A stretch of 64,000 bases of DNA from Beijerinckiaceae bacterium (lineage in GTDB: Bacteria; Pseudomonadota; Alphaproteobacteria; Rhizobiales; Beijerinckiaceae): contig CANGBC010000010.1 in NCBI GenBank assembly GCA_947452005.1, positions 1-64,000 of the forward strand, written 5' to 3'. Positions 1-18,653 of the stretch are shown here, in pieces. The translations under genes and the position numbers were made by a program. Below the pieces are notes generated by a model. It was not told where the DNA came from. It saw only the letters and a list, made by a program, of their open reading frames with translations, and searched no databases. Each line of letters starts with the position of its first letter. Position 1 is the stretch's first letter.

Positions 1-167
1 AGGGCATAGCCCTTGGCGCTCGGGAACCATGGACGCCACTGCCAAACGAGGAAGTGAGCGACCAACGCAACGATGATGTAGCCGATCGTGTAGGTCATGA
101 AGAAAGAGTGATACTCTTTCGCCTCCTCACTGGTCAGCCCCGTTACGGACATATGATTTTCAGCCAT
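1..167 (-). CDS. pufB: Light-harvesting 1 (B870) beta subunit, 3' end cut by window edge
   Basis: Short membrane polypeptide that binds bacteriochlorophyll in the LH1 ring around the reaction centre. The 55 visible residues have a polar N-terminus, one transmembrane helix (about residues 26-44) and the family signature AHFLVWQWRPWF, with His38 as the expected axial ligand of the bacteriochlorophyll. The ATG follows a strong GGAGG ribosome site at about 6 nt spacing. It is the last visible gene of the crtEF-bchCXYZ-pufQB run; pufA, pufL and pufM would be expected beyond position 1. Only the last few codons are missing. Confidence 0.95.
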   Translation of the reverse strand, partial: MAENHMSVTGLTSEEAKEYHSFFMTYTIGYIIVALVAHFLVWQWRPWFPSAKGYA

Positions 168-199
168 TATAAACCTCCGCTGCATGCCTTGCGGCTGCG

Positions 200-218
200 C
201 CGCGCACCTCCCGCGCGG
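200..218 (-). promoter_or_regulatory. GC-rich hairpin in the pufQ-pufB gap
   Basis: The 121-bp gap between pufQ and pufB holds a 6-bp perfect stem (CCGCGC/GCGCGG) with a 7-nt loop, about 33 bp upstream of the pufB start. Structured RNA near puf genes is known to set segment stability in related bacteria. Here that role is inference. I see no PpsR-type palindrome in this gap. Confidence 0.3.
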
Positions 219-288
219 CTGGGACATTACCGGGTACTTGAGATACACGGCACTTCGCCCGCTCAAGACAGGCGAAACTTGAAACTCT

Positions 289-501
289 TCAGCCCATGAA
301 GACCATCGGAATGGTCGCACCCGCGAGTGCTTTTGCATGTGTGTAGAGTGAGAGCTGACCATGCGTGCCCGCCTGCCCTGCAAGGCGCAGAGCAAAGGCC
401 GCAACAAGAAAGAGAGGGAAGCCAGCCAAAAACATCAGCCGATATTGCCGACGTGTGGCGCGCTCGCGCGAATGACGTGATTCATTCATGACAAGGCTCA
501 T
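289..501 (-). CDS. pufQ: PufQ, small membrane protein linked to bacteriochlorophyll supply
   Basis: Seventy residues with a basic N-terminal stretch followed by one hydrophobic helix (about residues 22-40, [20 protein letters not shown]), the recognisable core of the PufQ family. PufQ is reported to promote bacteriochlorophyll formation or delivery to the antenna and reaction-centre proteins. The ATG overlaps the bchZ stop codon (ATGA), so translation is probably coupled. An upstream in-frame ATG would lie inside bchZ and was not used. Its position between bchZ and pufB is the classical one. Confidence 0.88.
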
Positions 502-3463: not shown

Positions 3464-4474
3464 TTACACCGTGTCGTAAACGACTTCGAGGGACGGCTTA
3501 TGCGTGATCGTGCCACCGCACATGTCTTCAGCGGTTGCCGGTTGCAGCACGACGTCGCGACCGACCGTCTCACTGGCAAACAGGCCAAGCAATTCATCCT
3601 GCGTCAAAGGCACCGGGCGCACGGGCGGCGCATCGGCAACATTCTGCGCGAGCTCTTCGAACAGCGAGGCCCATTGCGTATCGGGTCGGCCAATGATTTC
3701 GTAATTCGCGCTCTTGCGGCGAATGTCTTCATCGGCCGGAATGGCGGCCAAAACCGGAATGCCAGCCGCCGCCGCGAAAGCCTGCGCTTCGCCGGTATGA
3801 TCATCCTTGTTGATGACCATGCCCGCCACACCGACATTGCCGCCGAGCTTGCGGAAATATTCCACGGCCGAGCAAACATTGTTGGCGACGTAAAGCGATT
3901 GCAGATCGTTCGAGCCGACCACAATCACCTTCTGGCACATGTCACGTGCAATCGGCAGACCAAAGCCGCCGCAAACCACGTCGCCCAGGAAGTCGAGCAG
4001 AACGTAGTCAAAGCCCCATTCATGGAAGCCGAGCTTTTCGAGCAATTCAAAGCCGTGGATAATGCCGCGTCCGCCGCAACCGCGACCAACTTCCGGGCCA
4101 CCCAGTTCCATCGCAAAGACGCCGTCGCGCTTGAAGCAGACGTCGCCGATCTTCACTTCATCGCCAGCCAGTTTTTTCTTGGACGATGTTTCGATGATGG
4201 TCGGGCAGGCGCGACCACCAAACAGAAGCGATGTCGTGTCGCTCTTGGGGTCGCAGCCGATCAGCAGAACGCGTTTGCCCTGCTGGGCCATCATGTAAGA
4301 GAGATTGGCGAGTGTGAAGCTCTTGCCAATGCCGCCCTTGCCATAGATGGCAATGATCTGTGTTTCTTTTTTCACCGGGCCCGTATGGGGCGCATCGGGT
4401 TCGATCGAGGCCTCATGGCGAAGCGCCGCATCAGCAGCATGCTGCATCGTGCCGTTTGTCGCATTCATTGGCAT
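3464..4474 (-). CDS. bchX: Chlorophyllide a reductase iron protein BchX
   Basis: NifH-like ATPase that passes electrons to BchYZ during reduction of the chlorin B ring. The P-loop GKGGIGKS lies at residues 45-52. The two cysteines that bridge a [4Fe-4S] cluster between subunits are Cys133 (GRGCGGRG) and Cys168 (VVCGGF). At 336 residues it is full length, with the roughly 35-residue N-terminal extension common in BchX. It overlaps bchC by 10 nt. A GGAGG site sits 2 nt before the first ATG and 8 nt before a second in-frame ATG at 4468, so the true start may be 4468. Confidence 0.97.
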   Translation of the reverse strand: MPMNATNGTMQHAADAALRHEASIEPDAPHTGPVKKETQIIAIYGKGGIGKSFTLANLSYMMAQQGKRVLLIGCDPKSDTTSLLFGGRACPTIIETSSKKKLAGDEVKIGDVCFKRDGVFAMELGGPEVGRGCGGRGIIHGFELLEKLGFHEWGFDYVLLDFLGDVVCGGFGLPIARDMCQKVIVVGSNDLQSLYVANNVCSAVEYFRKLGGNVGVAGMVINKDDHTGEAQAFAAAAGIPVLAAIPADEDIRRKSANYEIIGRPDTQWASLFEELAQNVADAPPVRPVPLTQDELLGLFASETVGRDVVLQPATAEDMCGGTITHKPSLEVVYDTV

Positions 4475-5409
4475 GTCCTCCAGTCCAGCACCATTTTCAG
4501 GCAGGACGAATCCTCGAAAGCAGTTCGATAAGCTTCATCCGCTGCGGCGGCTTCGCGCCTGTGCGTGATCAGTCCAGAAAGCAAGAGTGCGCGCGCGTTG
4601 AGCAAGCGCTGCACGTCTGCAAGATCTTGGGGTTGCCATTCAGCGGCGACGCGCAAACGAATCTCGCGCATGAAGGCCGGAACGAAATTAAAAGACGGAC
4701 GCTCGTCGTAGAATCCGGCGAGAACAATCTCGCCGCCGCGTGCAACACGCGAAATGAGCGTGTCAATCAAAGCGGCATCGCCGCTCGCATCATAGATGGA
4801 TGCGTAATCGCGACGCTCGTCTTGCGCTGGATCAATGACGGCATAGCCAAAATCACCGACACGTCGTGTCGCATCAACATCCCAAACGGTGGGAGCAGCA
4901 TGACCATGTGCGATGGTGAGACGTGCAAGCAAGCGGCCAAGTGCGCCGTGACCAATAATCAGTTCAGGTGCGCGCGCACCTTGTGCACCAAGCGCATGTT
5001 GCGCCGTCGCAGCAAGTGCGAGCAACACGCCGTCCTGCGCCGCGCATTCGGTGCCAAGCAAGGCAACACGATGTGAAGGTGTGATGATGCGACGCGCCGC
5101 GCCACCAAAAAGCCCACGCACATCTTTGTAGCAATTGGCGCCAGGCACGAAGACGCGCTGGCCGATGAATGTCTGTGCTGATGATCCGGCATCAACAACG
5201 GTGCCGACCGATTCGTAACCCGGCACCAGCGGATAACCCATGCCCGGGAAAGCCGGCATGCGCCCGTCCCACAGGAGGCGTTCCGTACCGGCGCTGACGC
5301 CGCTCCATTCCACATCAACCACAACGTCTCCGTCGCCCGGCGGATTTAATCCGATCCGGTCGAGGCGAAGCTCACGGGGAGCCTGCATGACGATGGCGAG
5401 CGTATTCAT
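4465..5409 (-). CDS. bchC: Bacteriochlorophyllide (hydroxyethyl) dehydrogenase BchC
   Basis: Medium-chain dehydrogenase that oxidises the C3 1-hydroxyethyl group to acetyl, a late step of bacteriochlorophyll a synthesis. The chosen start (MNTLAIVMQAP) matches the usual N-terminus and gives 314 residues. A longer reading from 5451 would start beside the PpsR operator and was not preferred. The Rossmann segment GHGALGRLLARL is visible. It opens the bchCXYZ-puf part of the operon and has its own PpsR-controlled promoter region just upstream. Confidence 0.93.
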   Translation of the reverse strand: MNTLAIVMQAPRELRLDRIGLNPPGDGDVVVDVEWSGVSAGTERLLWDGRMPAFPGMGYPLVPGYESVGTVVDAGSSAQTFIGQRVFVPGANCYKDVRGLFGGAARRIITPSHRVALLGTECAAQDGVLLALAATAQHALGAQGARAPELIIGHGALGRLLARLTIAHGHAAPTVWDVDATRRVGDFGYAVIDPAQDERRDYASIYDASGDAALIDTLISRVARGGEIVLAGFYDERPSFNFVPAFMREIRLRVAAEWQPQDLADVQRLLNARALLLSGLITHRREAAAADEAYRTAFEDSSCLKMVLDWRTCQ

Positions 5410-5454
5410 GGCTCGGGGCACTCTGGGGCGCGGAGAAACTGCTCCGCTCATGTG

Positions 5455-5498
5455 TGTCAGTAAAGCATGACAAAAATAAGTGTCAAGGAAGCTTTACG
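5455..5498. promoter_or_regulatory. Tandem PpsR/CrtJ operator upstream of bchC
   Basis: Box 1 at 5455-5472 is a perfect TGT-N12-ACA (TGTCAGTAAAGCATGACA). Box 2 at 5481-5498 is TGT-N12-ACG, one mismatch from consensus. They are separated by 8 bp, the spacing known for cooperative CrtJ/PpsR binding at bchC promoters of purple bacteria. Box 2 reaches to within 1 bp of the crtF stop codon. No ppsR gene lies in this window. Confidence 0.85.
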
Positions 5499-7495: not shown

Positions 7496-7565
7496 TGTCT
7501 CGGGCCTGTGACATTGAACACTGTCCATTATGCTGGACGCTTAGATCTGTTAAGTCAACCTGACA
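7496..7565. promoter_or_regulatory. Triple PpsR/CrtJ operator in the crtE-crtD divergent promoter
   Basis: Three TGT-N12-ACA-type boxes lie at 7496-7513 (perfect), 7522-7539 (TGT-N12-ACG, with arms TGTCC/GGACG) and 7548-7565 (perfect). Each pair is separated by exactly 8 bp, giving a 26-bp period. They fill the space between the crtE start (7476) and the crtD start (7589), so one array can control both directions. Confidence 0.85.
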
Positions 7566-7588
7566 GGTCGTCGGAAGCCGGGAGTACC

Positions 7589-9076
7589 ATGGCAAAAGAC
7601 CGGGTCATCGTGATCGGGGCGGGCATGGGTGGGCTTTCCGCCGCCCTCCTGCTGGCAGCGCGCGGGCTCGATGTCACCGTGCTGGAGCGTGCGGCCACGC
7701 CGGGCGGCAAAATGCGCCTCGTGATGGATGGCGACCACGCCATGGATGCAGGCCCCACCGTCTTCACGCTCAAACGCGTGTTCGAAGAGATCTTTCAGGC
7801 TGCCGGGCTCGATTTCGATGCGCATCTGCCCGTCACCCGTGCCAATATCCTCGCCCGCCATGCGTGGGATGCATCCAGCCGTTTCGATCTTTATGCCGAC
7901 ATGGATGCGTCAGCCGAGGCAGTGACGCGACTGGCCGGGGCAACCGAGGCACAAGGCTTTCGCAATTTCTGCGCAGAGGCCAAACGAATCTGGAAAACCG
8001 TCGAGGGCCCCGTTGTGCGCGCCGAGCGCGCGAGCCTCTTTGGCTTGATCAAAGGCGCTGGCCTGAAAGGCCTGCCTGATCTGCTCGCCACATCGCCATT
8101 CGAGAGCATGTGGCATGGTTTGGGGCGTCACTTCAAAGACAAGCGTCTGCACCAGTTGTTTGGACGTTACGCGACCTATTGCGGCTCCTCGCCCTTTCTC
8201 GCGCCCGCTACCCTCATGTTGATCGCCCATGTCGAACAAGATGGCGTGTGGATGGTCGAGGGCGGGATGCATGCTTTGGCACAGGCCTTTGCCAACGCTG
8301 CTGCGAGCAAGGGTGCGCAAATTCACTATCATGCGCATGTGCAAAATATCACACGCGAAGGAGCGAGCTTTCTCGTCAGCACGGCAACGGGCGAGACATA
8401 TACCGCCGACGACATCGTCTTCAACGGTGATGCGAATGCTTTGGCACAGGGCTTTCTGGGTGATAATCTGCGCACCGCTGCGCCAAAAGTCACTCAGGCG
8501 CAGCGCTCTTTATCAGCGCTCACTTGGACATGCGCAGCCCGCACGCATGGTTTCCCACTCGTGCGGCACAATGTTTTCTTCTCGAATGATTATCAGGCAG
8601 AATTCAAGGCGCTCAGCGCGGGGTCTATGAATTATGATCCGACCGTCTATCTCTGCGCGCAGGACCGTGGTGATGATGATAGCGCCAACGGGCAATCCGA
8701 ACGCTTCCTCGCCCTCATCAATGCGCCAGCTCTTGGCGACACAAAAACACTCTCCGACGCGGAGATCGACCTATGCATGACGCGAATGACAGACCGCATG
8801 GCAGCTTGCGGACTCACGATCGAGCGCACGCCAGAGCGCGCGCAGATCACCACGCCGACGGATTTCCATCGACTTTTCCCGGCCACGGGCGGCGCGATTT
8901 ATGGACGCCCGACACATGGCTGGCGGGCCACCTTCACGAGGCCGGGCATCAGGAGCCCCATTCCGCATTTGTATCTGACGGGGGGCAGCGTGCATCCGGG
9001 TGCGGGGATTCCGATGGCCGCGCTTTCGGGACTCACAGCCGCAGCCTGTATCATGCAGGACCGGATTTCGCGCTAG
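7589..9076 (+). CDS. crtD: Hydroxy/methoxyneurosporene (C3,4) desaturase CrtD
   Basis: FAD-dependent carotenoid desaturase introducing the C3,4 double bond into 1-hydroxy carotenoids. It is 495 residues long. The N-terminal dinucleotide fold VIVIGAGMGGLSAALLLAARG directly follows the start, and the C-terminal FAD signature region (YLTGGSVHPGAGIP) is intact. The ATG at 7589 has GGGAG about 7 nt upstream and matches the family N-terminus; a longer reading would run through the PpsR array. It is followed immediately by crtC. Confidence 0.93.
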   Translation: MAKDRVIVIGAGMGGLSAALLLAARGLDVTVLERAATPGGKMRLVMDGDHAMDAGPTVFTLKRVFEEIFQAAGLDFDAHLPVTRANILARHAWDASSRFDLYADMDASAEAVTRLAGATEAQGFRNFCAEAKRIWKTVEGPVVRAERASLFGLIKGAGLKGLPDLLATSPFESMWHGLGRHFKDKRLHQLFGRYATYCGSSPFLAPATLMLIAHVEQDGVWMVEGGMHALAQAFANAAASKGAQIHYHAHVQNITREGASFLVSTATGETYTADDIVFNGDANALAQGFLGDNLRTAAPKVTQAQRSLSALTWTCAARTHGFPLVRHNVFFSNDYQAEFKALSAGSMNYDPTVYLCAQDRGDDDSANGQSERFLALINAPALGDTKTLSDAEIDLCMTRMTDRMAACGLTIERTPERAQITTPTDFHRLFPATGGAIYGRPTHGWRATFTRPGIRSPIPHLYLTGGSVHPGAGIPMAALSGLTAAACIMQDRISR

Positions 9077-9078
9077 AT

Positions 9079-9996
9079 GTGCCTGAGAATGGCTATGCCT
9101 GGTGGTATATCGATGGCGTCAGCCATGACGGACAATTTGGCATCACGCTGATTGCCTTCATCGGCTCGGTCTTCTCGCCCTATTACAAATCAGCGCGCAA
9201 GAGCGGCTTTGTGAACCCTGAAAATTACTGCGCGATCAATGTCGCGCTTTATGGCGTGCGCGGCAAACGCTGGGCTATGACAGAACGCTCTACGCCCATG
9301 TTGACGCGCACGCGCAACGATTTTGCACTTGGACCCAGCAATCTCACATGGGATGGGACAACGCTCACGGCAGATATCACTGAGACGGCTTTTCCGCTGA
9401 TCTCACCTGTGCGCGGGCGCATTCGTGTCACGCCAAAGATCATGCCTGCCCGCAGTTTTGCGCTCGATGATGCTGGCTGCCATGTCTGGCAACCGATTGT
9501 GCCTATGGCCGATATAGAGGTCGAGATGAACGCGCCTTCCCTCTCATGGCGCGGGCATGGTTATGTCGATCACAACCGTGGACTGGAGCCGATTGAAGAT
9601 GGTTTTGCGGCCTGGGAATGGGCGCGCATGCAGGGCAAAGACCGCAGCCTCATCCACTTCGACATGCAACCGCGGCAAAGCTCGTTGCAACATCTCGCAT
9701 TGAGCTTCTATCAAGACGGACGGATCGACACTTTTGAGGCACCCGAGCGCAAGCCTTTGCGCCGTGGGTTCTGGGGCATGTCGCGTGTCACGCGCAGCCA
9801 ATCAGAAGCAAAACTCTTGCGCACCTTTGAAGATGCGCCGTTCTATACGCGCAATATGGTTGGCGCGCAGATCGATGGAGAGGCCATGACGGGTGTGCAT
9901 GAGAGCCTGTCGCTCGACAAATTCAGCTCACCCATCGTGCAGAAGATGTTGCCATTCCGCATGCCACGCGCCGGAGCCTCACGGCGCTTTTTCTGA
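9079..9996 (+). CDS. crtC: Acyclic carotenoid 1,2-hydratase CrtC, GTG start
   Basis: Adds water across the C1,2 double bond of neurosporene or lycopene ends, the first spirilloxanthin-branch step. The conserved opening GYAWWYIDGVSHDGQFG and the block FIGSVFSPYY are clear. In-frame GTG at 9079 lies 2 bp after the crtD stop, and upstream in-frame ATGs lie deep inside crtD, so GTG is the best start (305 residues). No Shine-Dalgarno is evident, suggesting coupling to crtD. The 3' end overlaps crtB by 18 bp, tail to tail. Confidence 0.88.
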   Translation: MPENGYAWWYIDGVSHDGQFGITLIAFIGSVFSPYYKSARKSGFVNPENYCAINVALYGVRGKRWAMTERSTPMLTRTRNDFALGPSNLTWDGTTLTADITETAFPLISPVRGRIRVTPKIMPARSFALDDAGCHVWQPIVPMADIEVEMNAPSLSWRGHGYVDHNRGLEPIEDGFAAWEWARMQGKDRSLIHFDMQPRQSSLQHLALSFYQDGRIDTFEAPERKPLRRGFWGMSRVTRSQSEAKLLRTFEDAPFYTRNMVGAQIDGEAMTGVHESLSLDKFSSPIVQKMLPFRMPRAGASRRFF

Positions 9997-11016
9997 CGCC
10001 ACGCGCCCCATGGCCATGCGCTCACGGTCGCGCCGCTCGAGCTTTTCGAAAATATCGATGACATTATCAATGCGCTTGCGCCGGATGGGGCGCGGACGCG
10101 CCGCTGCCTGTACAAGGAAAGCGCATTCCGGCAGAGGTGGTGCGCCATAGCCGGGCCCAGAAACAGCGGCCGTCGCCATTGCCTTGCCCAACAAAAACGC
10201 CTTGCGCGGATGCGAAACAACTGCACGGCGTGACACGCTGTCAAAATTGGCCAGCGCCACTTCGCGACCAATCTCTGCATAAATATACCGCGCCGACCAG
10301 ATGGCTGGGCGCACACCCATGGGCAAGAGCGCAATGCCCTGCTCTGCACGCGCATAGAGATATTCAGCTTCCTGCAAGAGGCGGCGCACCATGCGCGCCA
10401 TTTGTGGACTGAAGCTTGGCTCGCGCAGCCAGGCATCAGGATCAATGCCTTCTTCAAAATACCATTCGCGCGGCAGATAAATACGCCCGAGCCGCGCATC
10501 TTCACCAGTGTCACGCGCAATATTGGTCAACTGCATGGCAATGCCGAGATCGCACGCACGTGCGAGCGCTTCAGCTTCCGTCACGCCCATGATGAGAGAC
10601 ATCATCACGCCAACCGTGCCTGCGACGCGCACGGCATAGGCGCATGTGTCAGAGAATGTCTCACAAGGACGCCCGGCAACATCCCATTCGAAGCCTTCAA
10701 TCAGCGCTGCAGGCAGCGCGAAGGGAATCTGGAATTTCTGCACGGTCGCCGCAAAGGCGCGATCCACAGGCCCGTCATGCGGCACGCCCTCGTAAGCTGC
10801 GACCAATCGGCGGCGCAATTGCGCAACAGCGGCAAGGCCAGAGCCTGCGCCATCGACTTCATCATCCGCCACGCGGCAAAAAGCGTAGAGCGCCCAGACG
10901 GCAGGGCGCACTTCGACAGGCAGCAAGAGCGAGGCTGCGTGAAAACTCTTTGAGCCGGCACGCAAGAGATCGCGACAGGCTTCAAAATCGTCAGTTCGTG
11001 CGGTGAAAGAGCTCAT
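9979..11016 (-). CDS. crtB: Phytoene synthase CrtB
   Basis: Condenses two GGPP molecules into phytoene, the first committed carotenoid step. It is 345 residues long. The two aspartate-rich motifs are visible as ADDEVDG and NIARDTGEDA, the latter followed by GRIYLPREW, a strong squalene/phytoene synthase signature. The start ATG overlaps the stop of the ATP-grasp gene (ATGA). crtB is therefore the third gene of a P450/ATP-grasp/crtB operon rather than being paired with crtI as usual. Confidence 0.96.
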   Translation of the reverse strand: MSSFTARTDDFEACRDLLRAGSKSFHAASLLLPVEVRPAVWALYAFCRVADDEVDGAGSGLAAVAQLRRRLVAAYEGVPHDGPVDRAFAATVQKFQIPFALPAALIEGFEWDVAGRPCETFSDTCAYAVRVAGTVGVMMSLIMGVTEAEALARACDLGIAMQLTNIARDTGEDARLGRIYLPREWYFEEGIDPDAWLREPSFSPQMARMVRRLLQEAEYLYARAEQGIALLPMGVRPAIWSARYIYAEIGREVALANFDSVSRRAVVSHPRKAFLLGKAMATAAVSGPGYGAPPLPECAFLVQAAARPRPIRRKRIDNVIDIFEKLERRDRERMAMGRVASEKAP

Positions 11017-12149
11017 GCCGCCTCCAATTCGAGTGCAGCGCGCGGGCTCCAGCCAATATCGGCACTGGCGGCAACCGCCAAGGAAACACGCATGTGAGAA
11101 GCACGGCGCAAAAGTTCACGCGCCGTCCAGGGCATTGAGAGAAGCGGCATCGGGTCATTGCTGGCAAAAGTCACGTCACGCCGTTTGGTCATCGCGTGTA
11201 CGCGACCAGCAAAAACAAAGATGTTTGGCAGAGCGCCTTGGGCTTCCTGCAAACAAGCCCAGAATTGCTGAAGTTCCGTCTCGGGTCGCAGATTCAATCG
11301 CATGCCTTCATCGAGAATAGCCGGTGCCAAACTCGCTTGATCGAAAAAATGGACGCCGCTGGTCAGGCGCGGATTGCATTCAAGGGCAAAAATCGCGCCC
11401 GTCTCATTGCGCATAAAATCGAAGGACAGAAAGCCCGTCCAACCTGTGGCTTGCGCATAGGCCTCGACAAAGCTGCTCACACGGGCGTCTTCTACGCGCG
11501 TAAATCCGACCGCCACAGTCCCCGACATGACGCTGGCGCGGTAAATGGCTGTACCTTGCACCTTGCCATTGTGACACAGCGAACAGGAGGAGAGCTCCTC
11601 ACCCTTGATCATCGTCTGTACAATGGCGCTAGCATTGGCCGGAAAATCTGCGCCGCGCGCCAACAGGCGCGTGCCGCCGCCCCCACAAGAACGGCGCTCC
11701 TTCCAGACAAAATCTGCTTGTGCGGCAATGACTTTTGCCTGATCCACATCAGCACGCGCGGTCAGCGGCACAGACAGGCCCAAAGCCTTTGCCTGGTCTG
11801 CAAAGCGCCATTTGTCGTGCGCCTCATGCAAAGCGGCAGGCGGCATGGTGAAAATCGTCACATCGGGCAATCGCTCGCGCAGATAGGCAGCATAAAGCGT
11901 TTCTTCCGAAACCGGCAGAATGAAGCGCACCTGCTCTTCTCGCGCCAGTGCCTCAATCGCATCCAGCCAGCCCTTCGGATCGTCTGCAGGCGATGGTACT
12001 TGCACGGCACGAGCACAAGATCGCGAGGCGCGCGTCAAATGGTTAGCAAAAGGATCAGCCACAATCACGCGCCACCCAAGCTTGGCAAAAGAGCGCGCCG
12101 GATCAAGCGCCTTGGGCAGGCGCCCGAGTGTGAGCAGGACCGCGCTCAT
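11013..12149 (-). CDS. ATP-grasp domain protein of unknown substrate, in the carotenoid operon
   Basis: A 378-residue protein beginning with a Rossmann-like pre-ATP-grasp segment (MSAVLLTLGRLPKALDPARSF). The ATP-grasp region has a glycine-rich loop at KERRSCGGGGTRLL and the metal-binding ECNPRLTSG near residue 255. ATP-grasp enzymes join a carboxylate, via an acyl phosphate, to an amine, thiol or similar nucleophile. The partner here cannot be read from the sequence. It overlaps both neighbours by 4 nt (ATGA), so it is made together with the P450 and CrtB. No standard spirilloxanthin step needs such an enzyme. Confidence 0.8.
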   Translation of the reverse strand: MSAVLLTLGRLPKALDPARSFAKLGWRVIVADPFANHLTRASRSCARAVQVPSPADDPKGWLDAIEALAREEQVRFILPVSEETLYAAYLRERLPDVTIFTMPPAALHEAHDKWRFADQAKALGLSVPLTARADVDQAKVIAAQADFVWKERRSCGGGGTRLLARGADFPANASAIVQTMIKGEELSSCSLCHNGKVQGTAIYRASVMSGTVAVGFTRVEDARVSSFVEAYAQATGWTGFLSFDFMRNETGAIFALECNPRLTSGVHFFDQASLAPAILDEGMRLNLRPETELQQFWACLQEAQGALPNIFVFAGRVHAMTKRRDVTFASNDPMPLLSMPWTARELLRRASHMRVSLAVAASADIGWSPRAALELEAA

Positions 12150-13504
12150 AGCGCACCTGCTGTATGCACGCGGCACATGACTTGTTTCACGGGGCGCGTG
12201 GTGAGACGAGCAGCCGGGCGCACAGGTTGATCTTCCGCCCGCTCAAAATCAAACGCACGCAGGAGGCTTGCGATGATGAGCACGGCCTCAATACTGGCAA
12301 AAGCTGCACCCGAACAAATGCGCGGGCCTGTGCCGAAGGGAATATAGGCACCGGGCGTCATCTCGGCTTCGCGCTCTGGCAGAAAACGATCTGGATCAAA
12401 CACATCCGGATCACGCCAATAGGTTTCATGGCGATGCAAGACCCAGGGCGAGACAATGACCAAGGCACCTCGCTTTACAAAACGCCCACCAATGGTCGAA
12501 TCTTCCAACGCCACGCGCGGCAGAAAAGTGATCGGCGGATAGAGCCGCACTGTCTCGCGGAACACATTGCGTGTGAAGGTCAGTTTCTTCGTGTGCTCGA
12601 AACTGATCGGCCCATCGCCGCAAATCTGCTCCACTTCCGCGCGGATGCGTTTCACAATGTCGGGCTGCGAAGCCAGAATGAAGAACACCCACGTCAGCGC
12701 CGAGGCACTGGTCTCATGACCCGCCAGAAAAAGCACGCCCAGCTGGTCGATCAGCTCTTCGCGGGTGAAACTCACACCATCCGTATCATGAGCCGCCGCC
12801 AGTGCGCGGGCAATGTCATCACACCCCTGCCCGCTTGTATCTAGCAAAGCGCCAATCTGATCGCGGATGAAGCGGCAGGCTTCCAGCACTTCCGGCTTTT
12901 GCGGAACCTCCGTCCAAGCCTTGTCCAGCACGAGGCGTTTGATTTCGACCTGTGCGACCGAACGCTCAAAGATCGTGAATGCCTTGAACACGTCGTGTGC
13001 TGCGCCTTCATCAAGACGCGTCGTTGAAAAGACCGTGCGGCAGATAATGTCGGCGGTCAGATGCGACATCAGCAGATCAAGACTGAAGGCTTCGCCCCGC
13101 GCGGCTTTGGTTGAAAGCTCGCGCGCGCAATCTTCCACACCCGCCGCCATGGCGGGGAATGCGCGATTGATCCGCATCATGGAGAGTGCGGGGTCGACCA
13201 TTTCGCGCTGGCGCTTCCAGGTCGCACCCGACGACACAAAAATCGAATTGCCGATCAAGGGCTGCAGCGCATGCACCATCAGATCGGACTTGGGGAATAT
13301 GTCTTCCCGCTCCACCAGAACATGGCGCACGAGATCAGGCCGGTTGACGATAAAGGTCGAGCGACGCGACCAGCCCAGCGTGCCAATCTCCATGCGATAG
13401 GCCGCGCCCGGCAGCAGATCGAGCAAATTGCCATCGCCACGCAGAGCCGCCCGCAAAAGCGAGACAACTGCCGGCAAGGGTTTTGGGCGCGGTGGAAGAT
13501 ACAA
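12146..13504 (-). CDS. Cytochrome P450 in the photosynthesis cluster, TTG start
   Basis: Haem monooxygenase with all core motifs: I-helix AGHETSA, K-helix ExxR (ETVRL) and the haem loop FGTGPRICSGAAFA with the axial cysteine. An AGGAGG ribosome site stands 7 nt before a TTG at 13504, giving 452 residues. The ATG at 13543 lacks a site and would place the PpsR box inside the coding region. The general look is of the CYP4/CYP102-like bacterial class; CYP175A1 of Thermus, a carotene hydroxylase, is a precedent for a carotenoid substrate. No ferredoxin or reductase gene is adjacent. The true substrate is unknown. Confidence 0.88.
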   Translation of the reverse strand: MYLPPRPKPLPAVVSLLRAALRGDGNLLDLLPGAAYRMEIGTLGWSRRSTFIVNRPDLVRHVLVEREDIFPKSDLMVHALQPLIGNSIFVSSGATWKRQREMVDPALSMMRINRAFPAMAAGVEDCARELSTKAARGEAFSLDLLMSHLTADIICRTVFSTTRLDEGAAHDVFKAFTIFERSVAQVEIKRLVLDKAWTEVPQKPEVLEACRFIRDQIGALLDTSGQGCDDIARALAAAHDTDGVSFTREELIDQLGVLFLAGHETSASALTWVFFILASQPDIVKRIRAEVEQICGDGPISFEHTKKLTFTRNVFRETVRLYPPITFLPRVALEDSTIGGRFVKRGALVIVSPWVLHRHETYWRDPDVFDPDRFLPEREAEMTPGAYIPFGTGPRICSGAAFASIEAVLIIASLLRAFDFERAEDQPVRPAARLTTRPVKQVMCRVHTAGAL

Positions 13505-13516
13505 GTTCGGACCTCC

Positions 13517-13560
13517 TGTCCAAATCTCTTTACAGTCGATCATGTCAAAACGTAAACTGC
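13517..13560. promoter_or_regulatory. PpsR/CrtJ box between the P450 gene and the divergent membrane-protein gene
   Basis: 13517-13534 is a perfect TGT-N12-ACA (TGTCCAAATCTCTTTACA). Exactly 8 bp further, at 13543, a second TGT begins, but its distal half reads TGC instead of ACA, so this is at best a half-site. The perfect box lies just upstream of the AGGAGG of the P450 gene and 51 bp before the ATG of the divergent gene, so it could control both. Confidence 0.75.
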
Positions 13561-13584
13561 AACCCTCGTAGGCTGGGTGACCCC

Positions 13585-14334
13585 ATGGTTCGCATGCTCT
13601 TTGAAGCCCTGATCGCGCTGCATATTCTGGGTGGCGTCACAGGTGCGCTTGCCTTCTGGGTTCCGGTCATCGGCCAGAAGGGCGGCGACAGGCATCGCAA
13701 GGCGGGGCGCATCTTTGTAAAGGCGCTCACCCTCACAGGCTTTTGCGCTATGGCCATGAGCTTGCTGACGCTTTGGGAGCCGATCACCACGCACCCGCAT
13801 CTGGAGGGGAAATTCGAGCCTAGCTTCATTCGCGGCATTTTTGGCTGGATGATGCTCTATCTGGGCGTGCTCACGCTCAATCTCATTCGCTATGGCTGGC
13901 TGTGCGCGTATTATCCGCGTGATCGGCTGGCGCTGCGTGAGCCCGTCAATCTCGCTCTGCAACCGCTTCTTGTCATCGCGGCCGCCAATTGCGCCTGGCA
14001 GGGCTGGCGCATTGATCAGGTGCTGATGATCGCCATTTCCTTCATCGGCTTTGCAACTGTGGCCACAAACCTCTGGTACATGTTCAAGCCCAAACCCTCT
14101 GCCGTGGATTGGCAGAAGGAACATCTCAAAGCGCTCGTCGGCGCGGGCATTTCTGTCTACACGGCCTTCATGGCCTTCGGTTCTGTGCGCATTCTTCCCG
14201 AACTCGCGCTCAATCCGATCATGTGGGCGATTCCATTGACGATTGGCGTCAGCATCATCCTCTACCAATGGGCGCGGCTGGATGGGCGCTTGCGCAAATC
14301 TCACACGCGTCCTTTACCCGCGACGAAATCCTGA
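13585..14334 (+). CDS. Multi-pass membrane protein, DUF2306-like
   Basis: About 249 residues with roughly six to seven hydrophobic segments. The early block HRKAGRIFVKALTLTG resembles the conserved HR-x-x-G-R motif of DUF2306-type membrane proteins, some of which are thought to bind haem. That link is tentative. The ATG at 13585 is used; 13594 is an alternative. It is divergent from the P450 gene across a PpsR box and converges on crtI with a 34-bp overlap. Its placement suggests a role tied to phototrophic growth, but no function can be read from sequence. Confidence 0.65.
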   Translation: MVRMLFEALIALHILGGVTGALAFWVPVIGQKGGDRHRKAGRIFVKALTLTGFCAMAMSLLTLWEPITTHPHLEGKFEPSFIRGIFGWMMLYLGVLTLNLIRYGWLCAYYPRDRLALREPVNLALQPLLVIAAANCAWQGWRIDQVLMIAISFIGFATVATNLWYMFKPKPSAVDWQKEHLKALVGAGISVYTAFMAFGSVRILPELALNPIMWAIPLTIGVSIILYQWARLDGRLRKSHTRPLPATKS

Positions 14335-15824
14335 GCTGTCGGCACAAGGTCGCCGACGATCTTGGCTGACGAGATCACACCGGGAAGCCCGGCGCCAGGG
14401 TGCGTACCTGCGCCTACCAGATAAAGCCCCTTCACTTCTTCGCTCACATTATGCGGGCGGAACCATGCACTCTGGAAGAGTTGCGGCTCCAGCGAAAAGG
14501 CAGCGCCTTTCACCGAGCAAAGTCGGTCACGGAAATCAATGGGTGTCATGAGGCGTGAGGTGACAATGTGTTTGGACAGATCAGGCATCAGCGTCTCTTC
14601 AAGGCGCTTTTCAATCGCCTTGCGATAGGTCTCCGAGATCTCATCCCAATCCGTGCCGCTATCGAGATGCGGTACAGGGGCGAGCACATAAAAGGAATCA
14701 CAACCTTCAGGAGCCAGTGACGGGTCCGTCATTGTCGGGCGATGCAGATAGAGACTGAAATCAGGCGCCAATTTCTTGCGTGTGAAAATGTCTTTCAGCA
14801 GCTCTTCATAGCGCGGACCCAGCACCATCATGTGATGATAAACATCGTCGTAGCGGCGATTGGTGCCGAAATACCAGACGAAAAGACTCATGGAAAAATT
14901 GGCGCGCTCAATCTTGGCATCGGTCCAGCGGCGGCGCGGATAGTCTTTCAACAGCTTCGAATAGGTCCAGGCCGGATCAGCGTTGGAGACAATCAGATCG
15001 GCTTCCAGTGTCTCGCCACCCTTCAGGCGCAAGCCTGTCGTGCGCCCATCCTTCACCAGAATTTCTTCGACCTCCGCGCCATAGCGCATGAGGCCCCCCT
15101 GTCGCTCGATCAACTTCACCATGCCACGCGCAATGGCACCCGTGCCGCCCATGGCAAAATGCACAAGATGCATGCGCTCCAGATGCGAGATCAGGCAATA
15201 ATAGGCCGTGGTCGTCAGCGGATTGCCGCCAATGAGCAAGGGGTGAAACGAAAAGGCAATCCGCAATTTCGGATGTTTGAAATAGCGACAGACTTCCGAA
15301 TAGACCGAGCGATAACCGCGCAGCCGCACGAGATCGGGTGCTGCCGTGATGACGGATGAGAATTTGTGAAACGGCACATCAGCAAGTTGTTTGAAGGCCA
15401 CTTCATAAATATCAGCACTGGCTGCAATGAATCGGTCGAAATTATCAGCATCTTCCGGCGAGATGCGCGCGACTTCGGCGCGCATGCCCTCAAGATCAGA
15501 GACGCAGCGCATGGTGTCGCCATCGTCAAATCGGATCAGATAGAAAGGATCGATAGGGCGCAGATCAACATCATCAGCAAAATTGGCTCCTGCCTCCTGC
15601 CAAAGTTCTTCGAGCAGATAAGGCGCTGTAATGATGGTCGGACCCGCATCAAACGTGAACCCATCCTGCTTGAACACATAAGCACGGCCACCCGGCCCGT
15701 CGAGCTTGTCGACAATTGTGACGCGCCAGCCCTTCGCACCCAGCCGAATGGCAGCCGCCAAACCACCAAAGCCTGCGCCAATGACAATGGCATGGGGCGC
15801 ATTCGCATTGGGCGCGTCAAACAT
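14301..15824 (-). CDS. crtI: Phytoene desaturase CrtI
   Basis: FAD-dependent desaturase that converts phytoene to neurosporene or lycopene. It is 507 residues long. The dinucleotide fold IVIGAGFGGLAAAIRLGAKG is at the N-terminus and the C-terminal signature YLVGAGTHPGAGLPGV is intact. Its start overlaps the bchO stop (TGATG), so it is the third gene of dxs-bchO-crtI. It is separated from crtB, its usual partner, by three genes. Confidence 0.95.
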   Translation of the reverse strand: MFDAPNANAPHAIVIGAGFGGLAAAIRLGAKGWRVTIVDKLDGPGGRAYVFKQDGFTFDAGPTIITAPYLLEELWQEAGANFADDVDLRPIDPFYLIRFDDGDTMRCVSDLEGMRAEVARISPEDADNFDRFIAASADIYEVAFKQLADVPFHKFSSVITAAPDLVRLRGYRSVYSEVCRYFKHPKLRIAFSFHPLLIGGNPLTTTAYYCLISHLERMHLVHFAMGGTGAIARGMVKLIERQGGLMRYGAEVEEILVKDGRTTGLRLKGGETLEADLIVSNADPAWTYSKLLKDYPRRRWTDAKIERANFSMSLFVWYFGTNRRYDDVYHHMMVLGPRYEELLKDIFTRKKLAPDFSLYLHRPTMTDPSLAPEGCDSFYVLAPVPHLDSGTDWDEISETYRKAIEKRLEETLMPDLSKHIVTSRLMTPIDFRDRLCSVKGAAFSLEPQLFQSAWFRPHNVSEEVKGLYLVGAGTHPGAGLPGVISSAKIVGDLVPTAQDFVAGKGRV

Positions 15825-16714
15825 CAGACTTCTCCCAAAACATGAAAGCGATTGGCCAGCCGCATAATATCACCCACAAAAATTTCTGGTCGCTCTTCAT
15901 GCGCCAGATGGCCAAGGCCCGGCACACTGATCACTTCAACATCGGGCAGTATTTTGCGGATCTCCCGCGCGCGTTCAGGGTCAATCGTGCGATCGCGTGA
16001 ACCGACCATTAAGACAAGCGGCGTCTTCAGCTGAGTGAGGTCCGCGCGCAAGCGGTCCAGATCCCAATTGGCCATCATCCGCAACGTGCCTGCGACATGC
16101 GATGAATTTTGCGCCAGATGCCGATAAAGCGCGATGCCCATCGTATCAAGGCGCGAACCTGTCTCGTCGATCAGCCGCTCCACGATGCCCGATTGACGCG
16201 CCTGTGAGGAGACAAACCAAGGCACGAGCGAGTTGAAGGCGAGTAATTTGGCAAGTCCCGAGTAAAGCGTGTTGACCGCATGAAAAGGCAGCAATGCCGC
16301 ATTCAATCCAACCAGCAAACGTGGGTGGATCAAATGATCAAGCGTCATACGCACAGCCACTGCACATCCTGCTGAATGGCCAACAACCATTGCAGGCTCT
16401 GCTTTCAGCACAAGCAGGAGGTCAGCCAAAGCGCGCGCCATGCCGGGCAATGTGAAGGTCGATGAACGCCTTGGTTGGCTCGAAAATCCCTGACCCGGGA
16501 AATCAGGCGCAATCACGCGAAATGATTTGGCAAGTTCAGGCATCAGATCACGCCACGTATGTGAGGATGCGCCAGCGCCATGCAATAACAGCAGCACTGG
16601 ACCATCTCCCATCATCTGCACATGCCAATCGACACCGCCCGCACTGACAAATTGGCTTGCAGCGCGATGTGGCCAATCTTGCTTGTCACGTCCGAAGACG
16701 AGTCTTTCGCTCAT
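15824..16714 (-). CDS. bchO: Alpha/beta hydrolase BchO (magnesium chelatase accessory protein)
   Basis: A 296-residue alpha/beta-fold protein with the BchO opening ([21 protein letters not shown]), the oxyanion loop LLLHGAGAS, nucleophile elbow GHSAGC and a late histidine in GLGHLAHEE. BchO is found with magnesium chelatase genes and is thought to aid Mg insertion; its reaction is not established. The family N-terminus points to the ATG at 16714, inside the last 29 bp of dxs. It normally follows bchI-bchD; here it sits between dxs and crtI. Confidence 0.87.
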
Positions 16715-18653
16715 CTTGCGTGTCACTCTTGCTGCGCGTCCTGCGTCGCGTCTCAATACGTTCGACGCCGAGCGCGCCGAGAACTTTGCCAACAATGGCC
16801 GTTGCATCAAGACCCGCAACACGGATCATTTCAGCAGGTGTATCCTGCTCGATAAAGCTGTCTGGCAGACACATGCTGCGGAGTTTCACGCGGCCGCTGT
16901 CGAGCACGCCCTCATCCGACAGCTCTTTCATGACAAGGCCACCAAAGCCGCCCGTTGAGCCTTCTTCAATCGTCACCAAAAGATCATGCGTGCGCGCCAA
17001 TTCATGCACCAGCTCGCGATCAATCGGCTTGGCAAAACGTGCGTCAGCAACGGTGACAGAAAAGCCCGCTTCTTCCAGCTGATCAGCGGCGGCCAATGCT
17101 TCTGCCAAACGCGTGCCCAGAGACAGTAGCGCGATATCACGCCCGCAACGCACGACACGCCCGCGCCCGATCTCCCAGACGCGACCCTTTTCAGGCAGCA
17201 TCACACCATTGCCCTCGCCACGCGGGAAACGAAAGGCAATCGGCCCCTTGTCATAAGCAACCGCAGTTGCCACGGCATCAACAAGCTCAGCCTCATCGGC
17301 TGGTGCCATCACCGTCATATTGGGCAAGCAAGTGAGATAAGCGAGATCAAACGCACCGGCATGGGTCGGCCCATCAGCACCCACCAGACCTGCGCGATCA
17401 ATGGCAAAGCGCACATTTAAGTTTTGAAGCGCGACATCATGGACGATCTGGTCATAGCCACGCTGCAGGAAGGTCGAATAGATCGCACAAAACGGCTTCA
17501 TCCCGCGCGCGGCCAAGCCGGCAGCAAATGTCACGGCATGCTGTTCGGCAATACCAACGTCAAAGACGCGTGTGGGGTGAGCCTTGGCAAACACATCAAG
17601 GCCCGTGCCGCCCGGCATGGCAGCCGTAATGGCAACAATACGCGGATCACGATTGGCTTCGCGTGTCAGCGCGTCGGCAAATACGCGCGTGTAGGCGGGC
17701 GCCTTGGGCGCGGCTTTCGCCTGAACGCCTGTCGCCACGTCAAATTTCACCACGCCATGATATTTGTCGACGGAGGCTTCAGCGGGCGCATAGCCTTTGC
17801 CCTTCTGCGTTTTGACATGCAGCAGAATGGGGCCTTTGCCGGCATCGCGGATATTTTCCAAAATCGGCACGAGCGTCTTCAGATCATGGCCATCGACTGG
17901 CCCGATATAGAAGAAACCCATTTCTTCAAAAATGGTCCCGCCGGTCAAAAATGTGCGCGTATGGCTGATGGCGCGCGTGATCGTGCGATCAATCTTTTCC
18001 GGCAGGCGACGCGTCAACCGTTTGCCCGCATCGCGCAGCGAAAGATAGCGGCGGCCCGACACGAGACGCGCAAGATGTTCAGAGACCGCCCCCACAGGGG
18101 GTGCAATCGACATGTCATTGTCATTCAGCACAACGAGCAAACGGCTTTTCAGCTCGCCTGCATTGTTCATCGCTTCATAAGCGAGGCCCGCCGACATGGC
18201 GCCATCGCCGATGACAGCCACAACTTTCTCGTCGCCACCCAAAAGATCGCGGCCCACAGCAAAGCCAAGGCCTGCAGAAATGGAGGTGGAGGAATGGCCC
18301 GCGCCAAAGGGATCGTAATCGCTTTCCGCACGGCGCGTGAAACCAGCAAGGCCCCCGCCCTGGCGGATCGTGTTCATACGCTCACGGCGACCGGTGAGAA
18401 TTTTGTGCGGATAGGCCTGATGGCCGACATCCCAGATCAGCGTGTCGCGCGGCGTGTCGAAGACATAATGCAAAGCCACCGTCAGCTCGACGACACCAAG
18501 GCCAGCGCCCAGATGCCCACCCGTCTGGGCGACCGACTCGATCATGCTGGCGCGCACCTCTTCGGCGACGCGTTTGAGCTTGGCGGGCGGAAGTTTGCGG
18601 AGATCCGACGGGCGGTTGATCCGCTCGAGAAGCGTTGCCGGGGCCTGTGTCAC
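16686..18653 (-). CDS. dxs: 1-deoxy-D-xylulose-5-phosphate synthase, GTG start
   Basis: Thiamine-diphosphate enzyme that condenses pyruvate and glyceraldehyde 3-phosphate, the entry step of the MEP isoprenoid pathway. It is 655 residues from a GTG at 18653, which has AGGAGG 6 nt upstream; a longer ATG reading would cross the regulatory region. The TPP motif [18 protein letters not shown] and the PVDGHD block are present. Its place in the photosynthesis cluster and the PpsR-like sites upstream suggest a copy that boosts isoprenoid supply for pigments; another copy could exist elsewhere. Confidence 0.95.

What the first reader, a model, noticed from the sequence alone, without database searches (positions are those of the whole stretch)
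11013..14334. P450, ATP-grasp enzyme and membrane protein embedded in the photosynthesis regulon
A P450, an ATP-grasp protein and crtB are joined by two ATGA overlaps, so they are one translational unit. A perfect PpsR box lies directly before the P450 ribosome site and between it and a divergent DUF2306-like membrane protein. No known bacteriochlorophyll a or spirilloxanthin step needs a P450 plus an ATP-grasp ligase. Together these point to an undescribed light/oxygen-regulated modification, perhaps of a carotenoid end group (hydroxylation, then ATP-dependent coupling) or of another isoprenoid.
Basis: partly seen in the sequence, partly recalled or inferred. Interest (0 to 1): 0.75.

Follow-up and report, generated by a model that had tools for sequence, protein, structure and literature searches.

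The report
Carotenoid-linked P450/ATP-grasp cassette in phototrophs
Next to the pigment genes of this light-harvesting bacterium sits a three-gene set (an oxygen-using P450 enzyme, an ATP-dependent ligase-like enzyme and a membrane protein) that recurs beside carotenoid genes in many other light-harvesting bacteria, and it probably makes a chemically modified carotenoid.

Summary
P450 (12146-13504, -), ATP-grasp (11013-12149, -) and crtB are joined by two 4-bp ATGA overlaps; a TGT-N12-ACA box (13517-13534) lies between the P450 and a divergent, predicted 7-TM, DUF2306-like protein. The trio is a conserved cassette: all three occur in 73 of 88 loci examined (the window, the best 80 of 178 GTDB loci, 7 others), with crt genes in the flank of 72 of the 80. 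The P450/ATP-grasp overlap recurs in 49 of 74 same-strand pairs, the box in 25 of 72 intergenic regions (shuffles: mean 1.6, maximum 6). Reaction-centre genes were found in 48 of 49 carrier genomes searched. The ATP-grasp is not obligatory: 5 of 18 P450-orthologue genomes in a phototroph set lack it, and in two of these crtA stands directly upstream of the P450. The best solved P450 match is the carotene hydroxylase LUT5; the ATP-grasp has a canonical fold and invariant catalytic residues. Best reading: an accessory carotenoid-tailoring module, the P450 oxidising an acyclic carotenoid and the ATP-grasp coupling the product, plausibly a carotenoic acid. Gemmatoxanthin shows that such acids occur in photosystems. 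Substrate and product are inferred. No paper found in the held library describes the cassette.

The parts
13585..14334 (+). DUF2306-like membrane protein (249 aa, predicted 7-TM), divergent from the P450; 3' end overlaps the 3' end of crtI by 34 bp
   Evidence: 40-77% identical to 73 other members; histidines 13, 70 and 180 invariant in 74 of 74, histidine 37 in 73 of 74; AF2 pLDDT 92
13517..13534 (.). TGT-N12-ACA (PpsR/CrtJ-type) box between P450 and membrane protein
   Evidence: consensus recalled, recurrence computed
13511..13517 (-). Shine-Dalgarno AGGAGGT of the P450 (TTG start 13504-13502)
   Evidence: relatives start at or near the same place
12146..13504 (-). Cytochrome P450 (452 aa from TTG); AGHET, ExxR and Cys-ligand motifs intact
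12146..12149 (-). ATGA overlap, P450 stop / ATP-grasp start
   Evidence: ATGA (45) or GTGA (4) overlap in 49 of 74 same-strand pairs
11013..12149 (-). ATP-grasp protein (378 aa); K113, K150, D244, E257, N259, R261 invariant in 85 of 85
11013..11016 (-). ATGA overlap, ATP-grasp stop / crtB start
   Evidence: in 5 of 30 loci with both genes
9979..11016 (-). crtB, phytoene synthase
14301..15824 (-). crtI, phytoene desaturase family (TIGR02734 over cut-off)
15824..16822 (-). bchO (TIGR03056 over cut-off)
9109..9996 (+). crtC, carotenoid 1,2-hydratase family (270 bits, cut-off 400; start uncertain)
7580..9076 (+). crtD, 1-hydroxycarotenoid 3,4-desaturase (NF045637 over cut-off; start uncertain)
4465..5451 (-). 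bchC (TIGR01202 over cut-off)
10..404 (-). frame ending in pufB, LH1 beta subunit (NF040862 over cut-off), at the left edge of the window

Best explanation
An accessory carotenoid-tailoring module of aerobic phototrophs. SHOWN: three genes conserved and linked to each other and to crt genes, strongly associated with reaction-centre genomes in the samples searched, P450 and ATP-grasp often translationally coupled, catalytic residues intact. INFERRED: the P450 uses O2 to oxidise an acyclic C40 carotenoid. The most likely site is an allylic terminal methyl of a psi end group left unhydrated by CrtC, taken to a carboxylic acid, or else an in-chain methyl taken to an aldehyde. The ATP-grasp then activates the carboxylate as an acyl phosphate and couples it to a small nucleophile, probably an amine. 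The 7-TM protein, with four conserved histidines, assists the P450 in the membrane, perhaps by supplying electrons. PpsR-type control would tie this to oxygen and light.
Against: No substrate or product was tested. LUT5 similarity is distant and P450 specificity cannot be read from it. Gemmatoxanthin carries a free acid, which needs no ATP-grasp; its authors propose two cruH-like genes for the carboxyl step, and the Gemmatimonas genome could not be searched here. The Roseococcus dioate is described as C30, which other enzymes could make. The ATP-grasp is missing in 5 of 18 P450-orthologue genomes and in G402 and G144. Carriers without a reaction-centre match: G441, G966, and G012, G022, G024 of the window's genus (63, 76 and 93% complete). 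The window's own 58%-complete assembly has none either, though pufB is in the window. In the window's genus only 5 of 24 other genomes match the ATP-grasp (one a fragment).
Confidence: 0.45

Rival explanations
1. The P450 alone tailors the carotenoid, making a hydroxyl, a keto group or a cross-conjugated aldehyde such as a 19-al; the ATP-grasp serves a separate photosynthesis-linked reaction, for example on a lipid, quinone or tetrapyrrole side chain.
For: P450 occurs without the ATP-grasp in 5 of 18 genomes of the phototroph set, three of these with the DUF2306-like gene and two beside crtA. Enzymes for C19/C20 methyl oxidation and the steps to rhodopinal are stated to be unknown (PMC8342508 passages; PMC10604819 passages).
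Against: Frequent coupling of P450 and ATP-grasp (49 of 74) and shared crt context suggest one pathway; all 13 ATP-grasp genomes of the family sample also have P450 and membrane protein.
Confidence: 0.3
2. The module modifies a non-carotenoid photosynthetic molecule (bacteriochlorophyll, quinone, hopanoid or antenna lipid) and sits among crt genes only because they are co-regulated.
For: Reaction-centre linkage is as strong as crt linkage; in G402 the P450/membrane-protein pair lies about 475 kb from the reaction-centre genes with no crt homologue seen in the 20 kb read.
Against: Neighbours are mostly crtI, crtD and crtC rather than the bch genes probed (bchO 17, bchC 11 of 80); P450 stands beside crtA in two genomes and beside crtC or near crtI/crtD in others; best solved P450 match is a carotene hydroxylase.
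Confidence: 0.15
3. Ordinary hitch-hiking: three unrelated genes trapped in the photosynthesis gene cluster and inherited with it.
For: Photosynthesis gene clusters move and rearrange as blocks (general knowledge).
Against: The trio stays together through different orientations and neighbours in alpha-, beta- and gammaproteobacterial records, and the P450/membrane-protein pair persists away from the cluster in G402.
Confidence: 0.04

Closest known systems
CYP97 carotene hydroxylases (LUT5, LUT1)
   Same: P450 fold and motifs; LUT5 is the best solved match by profile (E 1.8e-68), LUT1 also listed (E 5.7e-49)
   Different: The plant enzymes hydroxylate cyclic end groups (general knowledge); here the neighbouring genes belong to the acyclic spirilloxanthin route; similarity is distant
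CrtA spheroidene monooxygenase
   Same: O2-dependent tailoring of acyclic carotenoids in photosynthesis gene clusters; adjacent to the P450 in L158 and L159
   Different: CrtA is not a P450 (PMC10604819 passages); not found by tblastn in the window or in the other loci held
Gemmatoxanthin biosynthesis (Gemmatimonas phototrophica)
   Same: Linear C40 carotenoid with methoxy end, C16 carboxyl and C19' aldehyde in the photosynthetic complex; genes for the C19 oxidation stated to be unknown (PMC8342508)
   Different: Different phylum; authors propose cruH-like genes for the carboxyl; presence of the cassette there could not be tested; the acid is free
ATP-grasp carboxylate ligases (GAR synthetase, PurK, PylC)
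   Same: Same fold and invariant ATP/Mg-type residues
   Different: 11-21% identity over the VIA rows; substrate unknown; the best solved match by sequence is 2pn1, titled carbamoylphosphate synthase large subunit
ATP-grasp proteins in KAS III / NAD(P)-oxidoreductase / MBL-fold / CoF- or F390-synthetase / GNAT operons
   Same: Nearest annotated relatives in the plasmid collection (29-37% identity)
   Different: No P450, DUF2306 or crt gene annotated in the stretches read; a different pathway

Membership tests
Cytochrome P450 (PF00067) | Family score and AGxET, ExxR, FxxGxRxCxG | tested here: met
   261.5 bits against cut-off 22.8; AGxET in 74 of 74, E317/R320/C397 in 74 of 74, full Cys motif in 72 of 74 (motif roles recalled)
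CYP97-type carotene hydroxylase | Closer to CYP97 than to other P450 families, and carotene ring hydroxylation | tested here: inconclusive
   LUT5 ranks first among solved chains, ahead of 7wzl and CYP46A1; no family tree was built and no assay is possible
ATP-grasp superfamily | ATP-grasp fold with ATP lysines and Mg-binding Asp/Glu/Asn | tested here: met
NF005315 / PRK06849 equivalog | Score over the curated cut-off | tested here: not met
   221.3 bits against 406; L013 220.2
DUF2306 (PF10067) | Score over Pfam gathering threshold | tested here: not met
   window protein 18.5 bits against 31.6; 22 of 74 members match at E <= 0.01, best 6.5e-5
CrtA (NF045923) | A CrtA gene in the window | tested here: not met
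   tblastn of two CrtA proteins against window and loci held hits only L158 and L159
PpsR/CrtJ regulon | TGT-N12-ACA box in the promoter region | tested here: met
   13517-13534; recurs in 25 of 72 regions
PpsR/CrtJ regulon | PpsR binding and oxygen/light-dependent expression | not testable with these tools
   needs footprinting and transcript data
Gemmatoxanthin-type carotenoic acid pathway | Enzyme converting a terminal methyl of a linear carotenoid to a carboxyl | not testable with these tools

The most novel reading that the evidence does not exclude
The first ATP-dependent carotenoid ligation: a P450 oxidises one end of an acyclic carotenoid to a carboxylic acid and a dedicated ATP-grasp ligase conjugates it (amide, or ester or thioester), giving an amphipathic, charge-transfer-type carotenoid for the antenna or membrane of aerobic phototrophs; the same P450 family also supplies the unidentified oxidase step behind free carotenoic acids and carotenals of other phototrophs.
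Probability: 0.28. Interest if true: 0.82.

Novelty: new variant of a known kind. Interest (0 to 1): 0.62.

Why it matters
The genes for methyl-group oxidation of purple-bacterial carotenoids (rhodopinal, C19/C20 carotenals) are stated to be unknown (PMC10604819 and PMC8342508 passages). This cassette gives concrete, widely distributed candidates, with named carriers (for example Roseococcus thiosulfatophilus, Rubritepida flocculans, Paracraurococcus ruber, Novosphingobium fuchskuhlense). An ATP-grasp in a carotenoid operon would, to my knowledge, be a new reaction type for these pigments; carbonyl and carboxyl groups are expected to change energy transfer and solubility. The question becomes testable by gene deletion and LC-MS.

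Tried and rejected
Chance or artefact: rejected by recurrence of order, overlap and box. My first overlap count (58 of 74) looked only at the last four bases of the P450 frame, which also asks that the start codon be in frame with the ATP-grasp, gives 49 of 74 (24 adjacent without overlap, 1 not adjacent) and is the number used.

Gene set special to the window's genus: rejected; record titles include Acetobacteraceae, Sphingomonadales, Beijerinckiaceae, a Rhizobiaceae group, and beta- and gammaproteobacterial MAGs.

General phototroph gene: rejected. Only 12 of 59 reaction-centre genomes in the family sample carry the ATP-grasp. In a 385-genome class sample 25 have PF00124 and only the window's own genome has a strong ATP-grasp match; three weaker ones (G572, G776, G791; G791 has PF00124) show no P450, membrane-protein or crt homologue in about 20 kb.

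A recurrent fourth gene (glycosyltransferase, aldehyde dehydrogenase, redox partner): none recognised by eye among the 80 largest clusters of flanking ORFs. These clusters were not annotated by family search and the largest merge shadow frames, so a gene could be missed.

Plasmid collection: no match for the membrane protein; every ATP-grasp (17 records) and P450 (823 records) match is under 60% identity, at most 37.5% and 39.3% in the rows listed. The Deinococcus ATP-grasp relative has only a GNAT gene beside it.

Literature: ten searches of the held PMC library. 'ATP-grasp' with 'bacteriochlorophyll' gave two cyanobacterial papers; 'P450', 'anoxygenic phototroph' and 'crtD' gave two, on algal carotenoids and bioprocess engineering; listings and abstract starts only, not opened. 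'P450' has no occurrence in the main texts of PMC5989583, PMC3176799, PMC12654162, PMC8781829, PMC8342508 and PMC7844134 (term look-ups). Passages only were seen of PMC10949492, PMC11406998 and PMC12817894. Subscription papers are mostly not held.
Full report
WHAT IS THERE. The window is the start of an 84.5-kb contig of a 58%-complete assembly. The first 19 kb are one edge of a photosynthesis gene cluster: pufB (at the contig end), bchC, crtF, crtE, crtD, crtC, crtB, ATP-grasp, P450, the divergent membrane protein, crtI, bchO, dxs. The assembly has no reaction-centre (PF00124) match, as expected if the rest of the puf genes lies beyond the contig end. The P450 probably starts at TTG 13504, directly behind AGGAGGT, rather than at ATG 13543, because relatives start at or near that place and the box would otherwise lie in coding sequence.

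CONSERVATION. The single scan of the GTDB genome collection with the ATP-grasp family found 178 relatives, of which the best 80 were kept. With the window and seven loci ascertained by the P450 I examined 88: ATP-grasp in 87, P450 in 84, membrane protein in 75, all three in 73. Of the 15 incomplete loci, 13 lie within 1.5 kb of a contig end; L126 lacks the membrane protein and L128 the ATP-grasp inside the 20 kb read. crt genes lie in the flank of 72 of 80 (crtD 55, crtI 54, crtC 43, crtB 27); the eight without are loci of 4.8 to 12.3 kb. P450 and ATP-grasp are on the same strand in 74 of 83 pairs, with an in-frame ATGA (45) or GTGA (4) overlap. The ATP-grasp/crtB overlap of the window recurs only in 5 of 30 loci. 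Arrangements differ: the ATP-grasp can be opposite to the P450 or displaced. In the window's own genus only 5 of 24 other genomes match the ATP-grasp, one with a fragment at a contig end. Median identities are P450 0.68, membrane protein 0.58, ATP-grasp 0.51, and pairwise distances correlate at 0.85-0.88 over 70 loci; common descent alone contributes to that.

LINK TO PHOTOTROPHY. PF00124 was found in 48 of 49 carrier genomes searched (50 of 80 given, one not held); the miss is G441. In 170 genomes drawn from the family of L030's genome (Neoroseomonas alkaliterrae), 59 have PF00124 over cut-off and 13 the ATP-grasp; 12 of the 13 are among the 59, the exception being G966 (Fisher p 1.3e-5, not corrected for kinship). 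In 397 genomes of the window's order P450 matches fall into a strong group and a weak tail. All seven strong non-self genomes and G144 have PF00124, while G352, G172 and G384 from the top of the tail have none (G377 was not tested). Of the seven, six carry the ATP-grasp nearby. A further set of 80 genomes was chosen for PF00124 (79, one probably counted twice) plus G966, so it cannot test the link itself, only what goes with what: a P450 orthologue at E <= 1e-190 is in 18, namely all 13 ATP-grasp genomes plus G596, G949, G955, G564 and G573. The membrane protein is in the 13, in G596, G949 and G955, and weakly in G613. ATP-grasp absence in those five and in G402 and G144 was rechecked with the larger profile (no match).

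WHAT STANDS IN WHEN THE ATP-GRASP IS MISSING. In G564 and G573 the gene directly upstream of the P450 is crtA, spheroidene monooxygenase (NF045923; 307.6 bits, over the cut-off of 300, in G573 and 294.6, just below it, in G564), with crtI and crtB nearby in G573. In G955 the P450 follows crtC and converges on the membrane protein; in G596 it is near crtI and bchO; in G949 it shares a contig with crtD. In G402 the P450/membrane-protein pair stands apart, about 475 kb from the reaction-centre genes. So the P450 is the core, the membrane protein its usual partner, and the ATP-grasp an add-on in a large subset.

REGULATION. TGT-N12-ACA occurs in 25 of 72 P450/membrane-protein intergenic regions against a shuffle mean of 1.56 and maximum of 6 (mononucleotide shuffles). 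Related species share sequence, so these are not 25 independent events, and 47 regions have no perfect box. In the window the same pattern also lies upstream of bchC (5455-5472) and twice in the crtE/crtD divergent region (7496-7513, 7548-7565; start codons uncertain).

MECHANISM. crtC and crtD, which prepare the hydroxy/methoxy end, are often neighbours of the cassette (43 and 55 of 80). A P450 acting on a psi end group before hydration would give an asymmetric carotenoid: methoxy at one end, oxidised at the other. [quoted passage not shown] Its authors say the genes for the C19 oxidation are not known and propose two cruH-like genes for the carboxyl (PMC8342508, abstract and passages). A 2023 review says nothing is known about the genes to rhodopinal (PMC10604819, passages). 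A 2025 review reports a C30 carotenedioate and its diglucosyl ester in Roseococcus thiosulfatophilus (PMC12654162, section 14), whose genome carries the cassette (L072). These parallels motivate, but do not prove, carotenoic-acid formation followed by ATP-dependent coupling. I give 0.45 to the full statement and about 0.75 to the narrower claim that the P450 acts on a carotenoid.

NOVELTY. No held paper found describes the cassette (searches listed under Tried and rejected). It is a carotenoid-tailoring module, a known kind, with a pairing of enzymes that I know from no other carotenoid pathway; the ligation step would be new if shown.

Noticed in passing
L158:8384-9151 and L159:8198-8977: crtA (spheroidene monooxygenase) lies directly upstream of a P450 of the same family in two phototroph genomes without the ATP-grasp, suggesting a second P450-using carotenoid tailoring route.
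   Followed up: partly
L162, L163, L165 (plasmids of Shinella, Rhizobium, Paenibacillus); L144: An ATP-grasp relative sits in a recurrent operon with KAS III, epimerase-type oxidoreductase, MBL-fold, CoF/F390-synthetase-like and GNAT proteins, with a Rieske protein in some; pathway not identified.
   Followed up: no
L128 (G402): A phototroph in which the P450/membrane-protein pair lies about 475 kb from the reaction-centre genes, with a LysE-family gene between them and no crt homologue or ATP-grasp in the 20 kb read.
   Followed up: partly
L069, L073, L076, L085, L088, L089 (Novosphingobium/Sphingomonadales): The cassette is accompanied by divergent crtI-like (43-44%) and crtB-like (34-41%) genes and crtD, perhaps a dedicated acyclic pathway in bacteria known for cyclic carotenoids.
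   Followed up: no
window 13539-13548 (-) and relatives: A TTGACATGAT-type element recurs in several of the 14 P450/membrane-protein intergenic regions printed, also where the perfect PpsR box is missing; possibly a shared promoter.
   Followed up: no
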